64,000 bases of DNA from an uncultured Spirochaetales bacterium (GTDB taxonomy: Bacteria; Spirochaetota; Spirochaetia; Sphaerochaetales; Sphaerochaetaceae): NCBI GenBank assembly GCA_944388965.1, contig CALXKL010000003.1, forward strand, positions 124,001-188,000, written 5' to 3'. The notes below the pieces were generated by a model. The model saw only the letters and a list, made by a program, of their open reading frames with translations, did not search any database and was not told where the DNA came from. The translations under genes were made by a program, and so were the position numbers. Within the stretch, counting starts at the first letter, position 1, and every line of letters begins with the position of its first letter. Positions 16,594 to 41,230 of this stretch are shown here, piece after piece.

Positions 16594-18303
16594 TCACTCC
16601 TGGTCTCCGTCCTCCCTGTTCCTGCTGCTTCTTATGCTGTCATAGCCGTAGGGCCTGATGGACTTCCTGGCACGGCGTGCCTTGTCGTAGGAATGGCTCT
16701 GGGCACGGCTCCTGCCATCCCTGTCCTGATATGGTCTCCTGTCATCTCCTGAAGACCTGTCGCGATACGAGGGGCGGCCATCGTCGCGGGACCAGGAGGA
16801 ACGTCCCTCACCGGCTCCATAAGGTCTCCGGCCTTCGTCGCGCCCTCTCCTGACATCCCTGTCGCCGGACCACCCGCGCCTGTCTCCCCTGTAGGAGGAT
16901 CCGCCCTCGTCCCTTCTCTCGTCGCGCCCACGCCAGGAAGGTCGTCTGTCGTCCCTGTATGAAGGACGGCCTTCATCACGGCCTCTCCTGTCGTCGCTCC
17001 TGTAGGAGGAACGCCTGTCGCCTCTGTCATAGGGTCTTCTGTCCTCGTCGCGTCCTCTTCTGACATCCCTGTCGCCGGACCACCCGCGTCTGTCTCCCCT
17101 GTAGGAGGAGGATCCGCCATCGTCCCTTCTCTCGACGCGTCCGCGCCAGGAAGGTCGTCTGTCATCCCTGTATGAGGGACGGCCTTCACTGCGTCCTCTC
17201 CTGTCGTCGCGTCTGGAGGGTCTGTCTCCTCCGGCCTGTGCCTCCTCGCTGTCGATGGACGAGACGAGGTGTTCGAAATCCTGATCGTCGACTGTCTTCA
17301 CCTTGGACCTGCCTGTTCCGTATTCTCTTGAATGATCCTCTCTCCACTCGAAGAGGTCGAGCTTCTCCATGAGCCAGGTACGGCTCATGCCACCCTTGGA
17401 CCTGGAGAACCCTACAGGAGCCATCTGCTCCGTGATCCCGGTTATTCTGAACGAGCGCTTCAGGGTGGATTTGTCAAGCGCGAAAGTACTTGAATTGCAT
17501 GAAAAAATCAAGATGGCATGGTCGCTCATGATGCGGCTGAGCTTCGACATCCAGGCAAGATAGTCCTTCTTCACGTCGAAGGGACGGGCCATCCTGTGCG
17601 AATTGGAGAAGCTCGGCGGATCGAAGACCACCAGGTCGTACTGCGCACCCTCCGCCACAGCCTTGTCGATGAAGGCCAGTGCATCGGATACGACCACCGG
17701 GAAGCGGGATTTGTCGATGAAGCCGTTGGCCGCCAGATTGCGCTCTGCAATGGCGCAGTACGTGTTGGACATGTCCACGCTGGTCACGGATTCCGCCTTG
17801 CCCGCCGCGGCATACACGGAGAAGCTTCCCGTATACGAGAAGAGGTTGAGGACCCTCAGCCCCTCGCTGATGCTCCTGACGTATTCGCGCGTGATGGCAT
17901 GGTCCAGGAAGAGACCGGTGTCGATATGGCTGGTGAGGTCCACCAGGAACTCCAGCCCATGCTCCTTGACGACGAGCTCCACCTTCTCGTCGCTCATGAG
18001 GGTGTGCTGCTCCAGCCCTTCCCTCTTGCGTCTGACCTGGTAGATGATGCGTCCGAGTTCGACATACGCCATCCTGTTGACCAGGTCGATGACCTGGGCC
18101 TTCGTGGATTCGTCCAGGGCTCCTGGTGCGTAGTCGACGATCTTGGCGTACTTGCCGTACAGGTCGACGGTCACCGGCACGCCCTCGAGGTTGCGGTCGT
18201 ATATCCTCACGGCCTCGCTGTCCGTGCTGCGCATCCAGCGACGGCCCTCGAGGGCCCCTCTCTTCAGGAGTTTTGCAAAATCCTTTCTTTCATAATCAAG
18301 CAT
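16594..18303 (-). CDS. RlmK-like 23S rRNA methyltransferase with Arg-rich repeat tail
   Basis: Residues 1 to about 330 match the RlmK half of RlmL/RlmK, which makes m7G in 23S rRNA: DTGLFLDH, LNLFSYTGSFSVYAA (SAM site) and the catalytic-loop motif FDPPSFSNSHRM. The RlmL half and THUMP domain are absent. The remaining ~215 residues are a disordered tail built almost only from R, D, G, S, Y and P (RRDDRRGRSEGRPSYRDD-type units), with one 71-residue block present twice in tandem (213-base offset). Such RG/RS-rich tails typically bind RNA. No good ribosome-binding site precedes the ATG at 18303. Confidence 0.88.
   Translation of the reverse strand: MLDYERKDFAKLLKRGALEGRRWMRSTDSEAVRIYDRNLEGVPVTVDLYGKYAKIVDYAPGALDESTKAQVIDLVNRMAYVELGRIIYQVRRKREGLEQHTLMSDEKVELVVKEHGLEFLVDLTSHIDTGLFLDHAITREYVRSISEGLRVLNLFSYTGSFSVYAAAGKAESVTSVDMSNTYCAIAERNLAANGFIDKSRFPVVVSDALAFIDKAVAEGAQYDLVVFDPPSFSNSHRMARPFDVKKDYLAWMSKLSRIMSDHAILIFSCNSSTFALDKSTLKRSFRITGITEQMAPVGFSRSKGGMSRTWLMEKLDLFEWREDHSREYGTGRSKVKTVDDQDFEHLVSSIDSEEAQAGGDRPSRRDDRRGRSEGRPSYRDDRRPSWRGRVERRDDGGSSSYRGDRRGWSGDRDVRRGRDEDRRPYDRGDRRSSYRSDDRRGRDEGRPSYRDDRRPSWRGRDERRDEGGSSYRGDRRGWSGDRDVRRGRDEGRRPYGAGEGRSSWSRDDGRPSYRDRSSGDDRRPYQDRDGRSRAQSHSYDKARRARKSIRPYGYDSIRSSRNREDGDQE
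16790..17215 (-). repeat. Two tandem 213-bp repeats in the RlmK tail
   Basis: Equivalent landmarks recur exactly 213 bases apart (for example the SYRDD-encoding stretch at about 16951 and again at about 17164). This gives two near-identical 71-codon blocks that differ by a few substitutions and one Ser codon. They stay in frame, so the block number can change without breaking the gene. Confidence 0.85.
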
Positions 18304-18347
18304 GGTCTGCTAATATTAGAGGAAATCGCTGTTTTAGGATAGAAGCA

Positions 18348-18818
18348 TTGGAAAGCAGGGAAGCAAGGCAGTTCATAGACCAGCTCGAGGCGGAGCTCGG
18401 AGCCCATATCGGATGGCGCACTTTCGCCACATGGTTCGCCTCCAACGACGGGACCATACGTGAATACGGCGTCTTCCTGAGCATATTGGATGACGGGACG
18501 ATGTACTTCGAGGACTTCGACAGGAAGCCGCAGATACTCGGCTTCACCATCAGGCCGAAGAACCCGGTCGAGTACGTCAAGTACAGCCGGAGGGTCTCCC
18601 TGGACGACATCAGATCGGTCACGAGGGTGCGCAAGAGCCACGCGGTGAGCACATGCTCCTCGGCCTCCGGCGTGCCGCTGTGCGAGGCTTCAAGAATCGT
18701 GCAGGCCCTGTTCCCGGTCGTCACGCAGGTGGAGCTTGCAGACGGCAGGTGCTTCTATTTCGAACTCATATCGCACAAGGACTTCGCAGGTGCGCTTTCT
18801 ACTTTCCAGGGGGAATGA
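18348..18818 (+). CDS. Hypothetical protein, 156 residues
   Basis: Unrecognised soluble protein. The reading frame is open much further upstream but is Arg/Pro-rich shadow sequence there. The TTG at 18348, with AGGAT 8 bases upstream, is the first sensible start (LESREARQFIDQLEAELG). The protein has a helical N-terminus, then beta-rich sequence (EYGVFLSILDDGTMYFEDFD). It ends four bases before the phosphomannomutase start, so the two are probably one transcript. An AT-rich TAATATTA stretch lies between it and the divergent rlmK-like gene and may hold both promoters. Confidence 0.6.
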   Translation: MESREARQFIDQLEAELGAHIGWRTFATWFASNDGTIREYGVFLSILDDGTMYFEDFDRKPQILGFTIRPKNPVEYVKYSRRVSLDDIRSVTRVRKSHAVSTCSSASGVPLCEASRIVQALFPVVTQVELADGRCFYFELISHKDFAGALSTFQGE

Positions 18819-30799: not shown

Positions 30800-32158
30800 T
30801 CAGTTGCGGAAGGTTACGGTGCACCCAATGGGGAGGCCCCAATCCTTAAGGATGTCGCCTTTTTGGGCAGTATATGCCTCTTTGAGTGATGATGGAAGAC
30901 TGAGTGCCGCAAGGCCGGAATACTCGAAAGCGCCTTTGCCGATGCTGGTGACACTCTCAGGAATCGTGAGGCTGGTCAGACCATGACAACTTTCGAAGGC
31001 ACCTGCTGCGATTTCGGTGACACTGTCTGGTATCGTTATTTCTGTCAGACTTGTACAGCCCTGGAAAGTGTCGGAACTGATAGAAGTCACCCCATCCGGT
31101 ATCGTGATGCTGACCAGGCTTGTGCAGCCAACGAAGGCGCCATAGCCGATTTCTGCGACGCTGTCGGGTATCGTGATGCGCGTCAGGCCTGTGCAGTTCA
31201 TGAAGGCTAAGAGGCTGATCTCGGTGACGCTATCTGGAATCGTGACACTGGTCAGGCTTGTGCAGCCGAAGAAGGCTTGAGCCCCAATGATTGTGACTCC
31301 ATCGGATATCGTGACGCTGGTCAGGCCTGTGCAGCCATAGAAGGCACCACCAAAGGAGGAGACGTTCCCGGGTATCACAACACTGGTCAGGCTGGTGCAG
31401 CTCTTGAAGGCATGACTGCCGATGGTCGAGACGCTGTCGGGTATTTCGATTTCTTTCAGGCTGGAGCAGTTCTCAAAGGCATTCGTCCCTATCTCCGCAA
31501 GACTGCTCGGCAAATTGATGTCGGCAAGGCTGGTGCACTCGAGGAAGGCTCCAATGTCAATCTTGGTGAGCCCGTTTGGCAAGTTGACATTGACAAGGTT
31601 GTTGCATTTTTCGAAGGCGCGGTTTCCAATCGTGGAGACACTGTCCGGAATCTTGATGTCGATCAGGCTGGTACAGTTGTAAAAAGACCAGGTTCCAATG
31701 GAAGAGACGCCGTCAGGTATCTCGATGCGGCTCAGGCTGGTGCAGTTGTAAAAAGCAGAGTTTCCGATAGATGTGACACCATTAGGGATGACGACAGTTT
31801 CCAGATTCGTGCAATTTCCGAAGGCGCCGTGGCCTATTGTGGTGACGCTGTCGGGGATTGTGACACTTGTCAGGTTTGTACATCCCATGAAGGCGTTATC
31901 GCCGATTTTGGTGACACCTTCAGGAATGGTGATGCTTGTCGCGGTGGTGTCGCACTTGGAGACGACGATATCGCCACCGTAATAATCGATGGTCAGCATT
32001 CCGCTCGGATCGTCCGGGATTTCAGGTGTTTCGCCACCACCAGGATTGACAGGGCCTTCCCCCTGTCCCTGGTCAGGCAGGGGCATGTCCCCACCACACG
32101 AAACAGCCATGCACAGTGCAAGCATGGCAACCAACAGCAAAGAAACAATCTTCTTCAT
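30800..32158 (-). CDS. BspA-type leucine-rich-repeat lipoprotein
   Basis: A 452-residue surface lipoprotein. The signal peptide ends in lipobox AVSC; a Pro/Gly-rich linker leads to about sixteen 23-residue LRR_5 (Treponema/BspA-type) repeats of the form TSVTIPDSVTEIGxxAFxxC. Such proteins bind host matrix or other bacteria in oral and gut anaerobes. Repeat units are diverged enough to be stable. Base composition is visibly less GC-rich than in the flanking genes, which with the adjacent phage remnant suggests transfer. AGAGG lies 8 bases before the ATG. Confidence 0.93.
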   Translation of the reverse strand: MKKIVSLLLVAMLALCMAVSCGGDMPLPDQGQGEGPVNPGGGETPEIPDDPSGMLTIDYYGGDIVVSKCDTTATSITIPEGVTKIGDNAFMGCTNLTSVTIPDSVTTIGHGAFGNCTNLETVVIPNGVTSIGNSAFYNCTSLSRIEIPDGVSSIGTWSFYNCTSLIDIKIPDSVSTIGNRAFEKCNNLVNVNLPNGLTKIDIGAFLECTSLADINLPSSLAEIGTNAFENCSSLKEIEIPDSVSTIGSHAFKSCTSLTSVVIPGNVSSFGGAFYGCTGLTSVTISDGVTIIGAQAFFGCTSLTSVTIPDSVTEISLLAFMNCTGLTRITIPDSVAEIGYGAFVGCTSLVSITIPDGVTSISSDTFQGCTSLTEITIPDSVTEIAAGAFESCHGLTSLTIPESVTSIGKGAFEYSGLAALSLPSSLKEAYTAQKGDILKDWGLPIGCTVTFRN

Positions 32159-40105: not shown

Positions 40106-41230
40106 ATGTCTAAGCCAAAGAGTACGGCAAGACTCGTGATTACCAGCGTCGTAATATCATTCGTGGTCATCGCCGTCTTTGCACTTGTGTTCATCAACTT
40201 CATCGTCCCTGCCTATCAGGTGACTGAGGACCAGATCTATTCCGTCCTCATCAAGCTGTTCCCGATTCTGATAGGCCTTATCCTCATCCAGATCGGCGTC
40301 ATGATCGCGAAGAGGAACGAGGACGAGTTCGCTGATCAGGTGGACAGGCTTCCTCCCAACGCATACACCAAGCCCTTCGAGTCATCCCCCAAGGACGACC
40401 CGGCAAACATATCCATCGATGCCAGACAGACCCAGGAACAGGTTCCTCCCAGACCTGTCGCGGAAGGCCCTGTACGGGAGATTGTCAAAGAGGTCCCCGT
40501 CGAGAAGGAGGTCATCAGGGAGGTCCCGGTCGAGAAGATCGTCGTCAAGGAAGTCCCGGTGGAGGTCATCAGGGAGATCGAGAAGGAGGTCCCGGTCATC
40601 CACGAGGTGATCAAGGAGGTTCCCGTCCCCTCTTCGGATGCCTCTCCCGTCGAGATTGTGAAGGAAGTTCCCGTGGAGGTGATCAAGGAGGTCATCAGGG
40701 AGGTCCCGGTCGAGAAGGTCGTCGAGAAGGAAGTCCCCGTGATCAAGGAGGTCATCAAGGAGGTTCCGATCGAGATCGTCAAGGAAGTCCCGGTGGAGGT
40801 TCCTGTCGAGAAGATCGTGGAGAAGATCGTCGAGAAGCCGGTCGAAGTCGAGAAGATTGTGGAGAAGCCCGTAGCCTCAGGCGTTGCAGATGCGCCTGTC
40901 GAGACCAGGATGCTGGACTTCGACGAAGTGCTCGACCAGGAATGCAGAAGCGCGCGTGACGACTCATATGACATAACCCTGGCGCTGTTCAGGAAGAACG
41001 GAACCGTCGACGAGGACAGGCTGGAGAAGGCCTTCAGCGCAAATGCCTTCATCTTCGACAGAGGCGATGACTACGCACTCATCTTCAGCTTCGCAAACGA
41101 GGACGAGGTCACATCCCTCATCCAGAACAGGCAGGCGGAGCTCGGAGACGTATCCTATTCCGTCGCCACCCAGAGCGGCGATGCGATTGATCCTGAAAGG
41201 CTCGTGAAGATGGCTGCGGCCGGCTTCTGA
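40106..41230 (+). CDS. Membrane protein with KEVPVE-repeat linker and degenerate GGDEF-like domain
   Basis: 374 residues: two transmembrane helices (about 10-33 and 46-66), a short acidic stretch, then about 140 residues of (I/V)-(K/R/E)-E-V-P-V-E units (for example REVPVEKIVVKEVPVEVI), and a C-terminal ~105-residue domain. That domain reads like a worn GGDEF or related cyclase fold (DEVLDQECRSARDDSYDITLALF) without GGDEF residues. The linker is an extended, highly charged rod. GGAGG precedes the start. Function unknown; the layout suggests a membrane scaffold or c-di-GMP-related partner. Confidence 0.8.
   Translation: MSKPKSTARLVITSVVISFVVIAVFALVFINFIVPAYQVTEDQIYSVLIKLFPILIGLILIQIGVMIAKRNEDEFADQVDRLPPNAYTKPFESSPKDDPANISIDARQTQEQVPPRPVAEGPVREIVKEVPVEKEVIREVPVEKIVVKEVPVEVIREIEKEVPVIHEVIKEVPVPSSDASPVEIVKEVPVEVIKEVIREVPVEKVVEKEVPVIKEVIKEVPIEIVKEVPVEVPVEKIVEKIVEKPVEVEKIVEKPVASGVADAPVETRMLDFDEVLDQECRSARDDSYDITLALFRKNGTVDEDRLEKAFSANAFIFDRGDDYALIFSFANEDEVTSLIQNRQAELGDVSYSVATQSGDAIDPERLVKMAAAGF
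40483..40875 (+). repeat. Tandem imperfect repeats encoding the KEVPVE linker
   Basis: Short in-frame repeats of roughly 21-30 bases around GAGGTCCCGGTCGAGAAG. Sequence differences between units are mostly synonymous or K/R, E/I swaps. Confidence 0.85.

What the first reader, a model, noticed from the sequence alone, without database searches (positions are those of the whole stretch)
16594..17235. rRNA methyltransferase with duplicated Arg/Asp/Gly/Ser tail
An RlmK-like enzyme carries ~215 disordered residues with a 71-residue block repeated in tandem. Bacterial rRNA methyltransferases rarely have such RG-rich tails; it could mediate RNA binding, condensation or association with assembling ribosomes. 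The 213-bp repeats allow length change by recombination.
Basis: partly seen in the sequence, partly recalled or inferred. Interest (0 to 1): 0.55.

Follow-up and report, generated by a model that had tools for sequence, protein, structure and literature searches.

The report
Arginine-rich tail on ribosomal RNA methyltransferase
In one family of spirochaete bacteria, an enzyme that resembles ribosomal-RNA methyltransferases carries a long, floppy, arginine-rich tail whose length and repeats change from species to species but whose last twenty or so residues stay the same, which suggests that the tail is a working part rather than junk.

Summary
The tail is not RG/RGG-rich. It is arginine/aspartate mixed-charge with aromatic residues. 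It is not peculiar to this strain. In the window's family (139 genomes), 126 have the gene. Of 108 whose reading frame ends inside the contig, 102 end in a conserved peptide, [K/R]PYG[Y/F]DxFxx[S/T][R/K]xR. A profile of that peptide hits 117 of 139 family genomes. In a phylum sample it hits 11 of 296, all in the family. Repeat units differ between species, yet arginine is preferred over lysine in 100 of 100 arginine-rich blocks. Tail dN/dS is 0.09-0.33 in 13 of 13 pairs. The core tree puts the tail's gain at the base of the family, with one clear loss. A separate fused RlmKL without a tail is also encoded. Best reading: a lineage-specific RNA-binding, possibly condensing tail with a terminal docking peptide on a stand-alone RlmK paralogue. 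Substrate, partner and condensation are untested.

The parts
16594..18303 (-). whole gene: stand-alone RlmK-like methyltransferase with C-terminal disordered tail, 569 aa
   Evidence: ORF list; family hits; structure model
17362..18303 (-). methyltransferase core, residues 1-314
   Evidence: PF10672 and PF03602; residues 6-312 match the RlmK half of NF008748; PDB 3v8v/3v97
17236..17286 (-). residues 340-356, acidic/hydrophobic linker motif, weakly predicted helix
   Evidence: AlphaFold helix 340-356 with pLDDT about 35-48; similar acidic/hydrophobic patches seen by eye in other members
16657..17250 (-). arginine/aspartate mixed-charge disordered block, about residues 352-549
   Evidence: about 30% R, 22% D+E, 5% aliphatic in this protein; pLDDT about 33
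16990..17202 (-). repeat unit 1, residues 368-438
16777..16989 (-). repeat unit 2, residues 439-509
16615..16656 (-). conserved C-terminal peptide, residues 550-563 (RPYGYDSIRSSRNR)
   Evidence: 102 of 108 complete reading frames; profile found only in this gene

Best explanation
It is a stand-alone RlmK-type RNA methyltransferase that gained, once at the base of this spirochaete family, a disordered tail made of two functional parts: (1) an arginine/aspartate/aromatic block that binds RNA through many weak contacts and probably raises the enzyme's local concentration on structured 23S rRNA or assembling 50S particles, possibly as condensates; (2) a conserved C-terminal peptide, [K/R]PYG[Y/F]DxFxx[S/T][R/K]xR, that docks on one conserved partner. 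Unequal recombination between repeats keeps rewriting length and repeat sequence while selection holds the composition and the end peptide. Shown by computation: core homology, disorder, family-wide conservation of the end peptide, selection for Arg over Lys, purifying selection on the tail, a single gain. Inferred: RNA binding, condensation, 50S targeting, docking.
For: Core is RlmK-like. Tail is disordered. 126 of 139 family genomes have the gene. 102 of 108 complete frames end in the peptide. Of the six others, four have the peptide downstream in another reading frame, one is interrupted by unknown bases, and only G021 truly lacks a tail. The peptide profile hits 117 of 139 family genomes and, in a phylum sample, 11 of 296, all 11 in the family. 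R/(R+K) in the R-rich block exceeds that of the core in 100 of 100; median R 30%, D+E 26%, Y/F/W 11%, VLIMAC 2%. It holds at low GC: G032, core GC3 0.15, core R/(R+K) 0.40 against block 0.96. Tail dN/dS is 0.09-0.33 in 13 of 13 pairs. The tailed clade has 100/99 support. In E. coli, RlmKL unwinds helix 74 and stimulates 50S assembly (PMC11194073, passages read), a function for which RNA-binding appendages would be useful.
Against: No experiment. Methylation target unknown; a fused RlmKL with both DPP motifs intact is also encoded, so the stand-alone enzyme may not make m7G2069. Two genomes, G065 and G099, keep the peptide and core but have lost the R-rich block (9-11% R, 113-residue tails), so the block is not indispensable. 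G021 has lost the whole tail. The model gives the end peptide very low confidence and no sign of order there (shallow alignment of 9). Net charge of the block is only slightly positive (median +0.07 per residue, minimum -0.07), which is weak for simple electrostatic RNA binding.
Confidence: 0.5

Rival explanations
1. The R-rich block is mainly a soluble, length-tolerant tether; the business end is the C-terminal peptide, which recruits the methyltransferase to a partner or the partner to rRNA. This works like the microdomains in the disordered half of RNase E.
For: The end peptide is far better conserved than the block. G065 and G099 keep the peptide after losing the R-rich block. Lengths from 113 to 656 are tolerated.
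Against: A plain tether does not explain why arginine is preferred over lysine in 100 of 100 blocks, nor the steady 6-14% aromatic content.
Confidence: 0.25
2. The enzyme with its tail acts mainly on something other than 23S rRNA, for example as an mRNA or tRNA methyltransferase or a scaffold of an RNA-processing complex; the fused RlmKL makes the rRNA marks.
For: Fused RlmKL is present with intact motifs and forms a clade apart from the stand-alone enzymes.
Against: Stand-alone relatives without a tail occur widely in the class, and the literature places separate RlmK and RlmL in other bacteria (PMC11194073).
Confidence: 0.15
3. The tail is a neutral or selfish repeat expansion without function.
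For: Repeat units and lengths differ between species (the most frequent 6-mer has 89 different sequences in 102 tails); frameshifts occur in 4 of 108 frames.
Against: Purifying selection in 13 of 13 pairs; end peptide in 102 of 108; one clear loss in the family tree.
Confidence: 0.05
4. The repeat region is shaped by an overlapping gene in another frame.
For: A 185-aa open frame overlaps it (16632-17189 minus).
Against: The +1 frame is open because of the amino-acid make-up: 221 codons observed against a mean of 215 with synonymous codons shuffled, 93 of 200 shuffles at least as long; no +1 excess in 8 of 8 species tested. The +2 frame is unusually long in 2 of 8 (G008, G001), not in the window.
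Confidence: 0.01

Closest known systems
E. coli RlmKL (RlmK half; PDB 3v8v, 3v97)
   Same: Same fold and the DPPxFSNS and LNLFxYTG motifs; 32% identity over the core
   Different: E. coli RlmK is fused to RlmL and has no disordered tail; here the enzyme stands alone, next to a separate fused RlmKL
Eukaryotic fibrillarin (methyltransferase plus glycine-arginine-rich GAR domain)
   Same: An rRNA methyltransferase fold carrying an arginine-rich disordered extension (abstracts PMC11599257 and PMC7194090 in the listing)
   Different: Unrelated methyltransferase, extension at the N terminus and RGG-based (partly recalled); here R/D mixed-charge at the C terminus with a docking-like end peptide. Analogy only
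Arginine-enriched mixed-charge domains (nuclear speckle proteins)
   Same: High Arg balanced by acidic residues, low complexity. Title seen in the references of PMC13269538; the paper itself was not held
   Different: Eukaryotic, nuclear; here bacterial, with 6-14% aromatics and attached to an enzyme
RNase E C-terminal region (RNA degradosome, BR-bodies)
   Same: Catalytic domain plus disordered noncatalytic region with microdomains that bind partners (abstracts PMC4435900 and PMC10412687 in the listing)
   Different: Different enzyme; partners known there and unknown here
Bacteroides Rho disordered region
   Same: Bacterial RNA enzyme whose charged disordered region with conserved short motifs controls RNA-dependent condensation (PMC13269538, passages)
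   Different: Lysine/glutamate-rich, inside Rho; here arginine/aspartate-rich on a methyltransferase

Membership tests
RlmK / PF10672-type class I RNA methyltransferases | Sequence and fold match over the whole RlmK domain | tested here: met
   PF10672 85.1 bits against cut-off 27; PDB 3v8v 9e-50; Foldseek 3v97 3e-25
RlmK / PF10672-type class I RNA methyltransferases | SAM motif and catalytic DPPxFSNS motif present | tested here: met
   LNLFSYTG and DPPSFSNS in the alignment; motif meaning partly recalled
RlmK (23S m7G2069) as an orthologue | Reaches the NCBIfam equivalog cut-off for RlmKL | tested here: not met
   253 bits against 466; the model spans the fused 704-residue protein, so a half cannot be expected to reach it
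RlmK (23S m7G2069) as an orthologue | Methylates G2069 of 23S rRNA | not testable with these tools
   A fused RlmKL paralogue is present, so the target is open
RGG/GAR-domain proteins (fibrillarin-like) | RGG repeats | tested here: not met
   0 RGG in this tail; 0 in 22 of the 27 tails counted
Arginine-enriched mixed-charge domains | Low-complexity Arg balanced by Asp/Glu, near-neutral net charge | tested here: met
   Median R 0.30, D+E 0.26, net +0.07 per residue in 100 blocks; the definition itself is recalled
Arginine-enriched mixed-charge domains | Drives condensation | not testable with these tools
   Needs protein and microscopy

The most novel reading that the evidence does not exclude
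A whole bacterial family has evolved a nucleolus-like device: an rRNA methyltransferase whose arginine/aspartate/aromatic tail condenses with precursor rRNA and whose end peptide recruits a fixed assembly partner (helicase or assembly GTPase), giving spirochaetes a ribosome-assembly condensate convergent with fibrillarin's.
Probability: 0.12. Interest if true: 0.85.

Novelty: new variant of a known kind. Interest (0 to 1): 0.5.

Why it matters
Arginine-rich disordered appendages on rRNA methyltransferases are best known from the eukaryotic nucleolus (fibrillarin). Here a bacterial family carries an independently built version on an unrelated methyltransferase, with more than a hundred natural variants that keep composition and end peptide while rewriting sequence and length. 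That is a ready-made series for asking which properties of a disordered tail evolution holds fixed and whether condensation serves ribosome assembly in bacteria. The end peptide gives a concrete bait for finding its partner.

Tried and rejected
RGG/GAR membership: rejected, no RGG in this tail. Overlapping gene: rejected. Neutral expansion: rejected on dN/dS and conservation. A second protein sharing the end peptide: the weak extra hits were examined; those that resolved (G000, G005, G008, G009, G030) belong to one ATPase-like protein (name by eye, no family search) with an internal FFWLDD-type stretch in the G000 copy, judged chance; the G019:C52 extra hit was not resolved to it, and the second G081 hit (a 42-codon frame, E 0.006) was not examined. 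The whole-tail search of the own genome found only this gene, and the motif pattern search gave one further hit in a frame broken by stops. Recent duplication of the repeat in this strain alone: rejected, the sister species G002 has both units, and unit 2 is as close to its counterpart there (87%) as to unit 1 here (83%). A fold-back of the end peptide on the core: no sign of it, but the model is weak there. Literature: the searches listed no paper describing such a tail on a bacterial rRNA methyltransferase; listings only, open-licence papers only.

Full report
Observation. The quoted stretch is the C-terminal part of a 569-aa reading frame on the minus strand, 16594-18303. Two tandem 71-residue units lie at 16990-17202 and 16777-16989; over 70 aligned columns they are 83% identical as protein and 82% as DNA. 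The best ungapped 71-residue self-match (42) exceeds all 500 residue shuffles (maximum 27). The sister species G002 (core 86% identical) has both units, so the duplication is older than this species.

What the core is. Residues 6-312 match the RlmK half of the RlmKL model (253 bits; cut-off 466 for the fused protein). PF10672 scores 85.1 bits against a cut-off of 27. The nearest solved structures are E. coli RlmKL by sequence and by fold. SAM and DPP motifs are intact. The same genome also has a fused RlmKL without this tail; the four fused copies I read (G000, G002, G036, G017) all lack it, and the own genome's has DPPYG and DPPTFSNS. In the tree of 72 cores the fused copies form a clade of their own. 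So the window gene is an old stand-alone paralogue and its target base is not known. Separate RlmK and RlmL enzymes are known in other bacteria (PMC11194073, passages).

What the tail is. AlphaFold gives the core good confidence and the tail about 33, apart from a weak helix at 340-356 (alignment of nine). Composition is Arg/Asp with Ser, Gly and Tyr, not RGG. Of the 139 family genomes searched, 126 have the core at E <= 1e-48. I fetched all 126: 18 frames run off a contig and 108 end properly. Of these 108, 102 carry [PAL][YF]G[YFM][DGE] within the last 75 residues, followed by largely conserved F/I (97 of 102), R/K (97 of 102) and R (91 of 102) at positions +6, +10 and +12, which the search pattern did not fix. 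The six others: G154, G140, G141 and G125 have the peptide in another frame, G128 has unknown bases, G021 has no tail (320 aa). A profile of the peptide (rows verified) hits 117 of 139 family genomes at E <= 0.01. It also finds the peptide in four genomes that had no core hit (G013, G066, G085, G158), and on a separate contig in ten of the 18 whose frame ran off (compare the lists). In a phylum sample it hits 11 of 296 genomes, all 11 in the family.

Selection. Tail lengths run from 113 to 656 (median 258.5). Neighbouring species differ: G143 and G144, cores 96% identical, have tails of 656 and 554. The repeat sequence is species-specific (89 different most-frequent 6-mers in 102 tails). Yet 100 of 102 have an R-rich block of at least 60 residues, with median 30% R, 26% D+E, 11% Y/F/W and 2% VLIMAC. 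R/(R+K) is higher than in the core in 100 of 100, including AT-rich genomes; D/(D+E) is higher in 79 of 100. Nei-Gojobori dN/dS of the tail is 0.09-0.33 in 13 of 13 pairs, against 0.01-0.13 for the core. Alignment of repeat arrays makes the tail values rough. The tail is therefore less constrained than the core but clearly not neutral.

Origin. In the class search 108 of 297 genomes matched. I inspected 21 outside the family: the longest tail was 63 residues and none showed the peptide by eye. Six named relatives from Bacteroidetes, Chlamydiae and Leptospiraceae have none either. The family clade has 100/99 support; its sister G167 has a 58-residue basic tail without the peptide. The simplest account is one gain at the base of the family. 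G021, on a long branch inside the clade (placement unsure), lost the tail. G065 and G099 kept the peptide but lost the R-rich block. The window's nearest named relatives are 'uncultured Spirochaetales'; that the family is Sphaerochaetaceae is my recollection from genome sizes and comes from no call.

Mechanism. Most likely, the block binds RNA by many weak Arg and aromatic contacts and the end peptide docks a partner, holding the enzyme at 23S rRNA or 50S precursors. E. coli RlmKL unwinds helix 74 and helps 50S assembly independently of methylation (passages of PMC11194073; there the L domain suffices for the assembly effect, which weakens the parallel), so a stand-alone RlmK-like enzyme that needs access to structured rRNA could profit from such a tail. 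This step is inference. The retention of the peptide without the block in two genomes says that the two parts can be separated. No exact precedent was found in the searches listed; the nearest analogies are fibrillarin's GAR domain, the RNase E scaffold and Bacteroides Rho.

Verdict. Observation right; interpretation right in direction but wrong on RG and incomplete; a family-wide, selected, lineage-specific disordered tail with an end peptide found in no other protein examined: a new variant of a known kind.

Noticed in passing
18126-18818 (+), real gene probably about 18360-18818: A small protein without any Pfam match is transcribed divergently from the methyltransferase and is found beside it in 11 of 12 loci checked (the twelfth, L093, does not reach that far), with a phosphomannomutase-like gene (name by eye) behind it in the same 11.
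   Followed up: partly
L113 (G000:C1 near 237707): A DEAD-box helicase of the same genome also ends in a disordered-looking Arg/Ser/Asp-rich tail; a possible co-player, not tested.
   Followed up: no
L088 (G140), L181 (G141), L074 (G154), L191 (G125): Frameshifts inside or before the tail, with the end peptide in another frame; G140 is a one-contig genome. Sequencing error or real on/off variation is open.
   Followed up: partly
L083 (G025) and L084 (G061): One genus has a diverged tail richer in Gly/Asn, and G025 has a very long core branch.
   Followed up: no
31094-31345 and 31624-31755: 69-bp tandem repeats, unit count 3.7 and 1.9.
   Followed up: no
40484-40837: 30-bp and 12-bp tandem repeats that look like coding Glu/Val/Lys repeats.
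   Followed up: no
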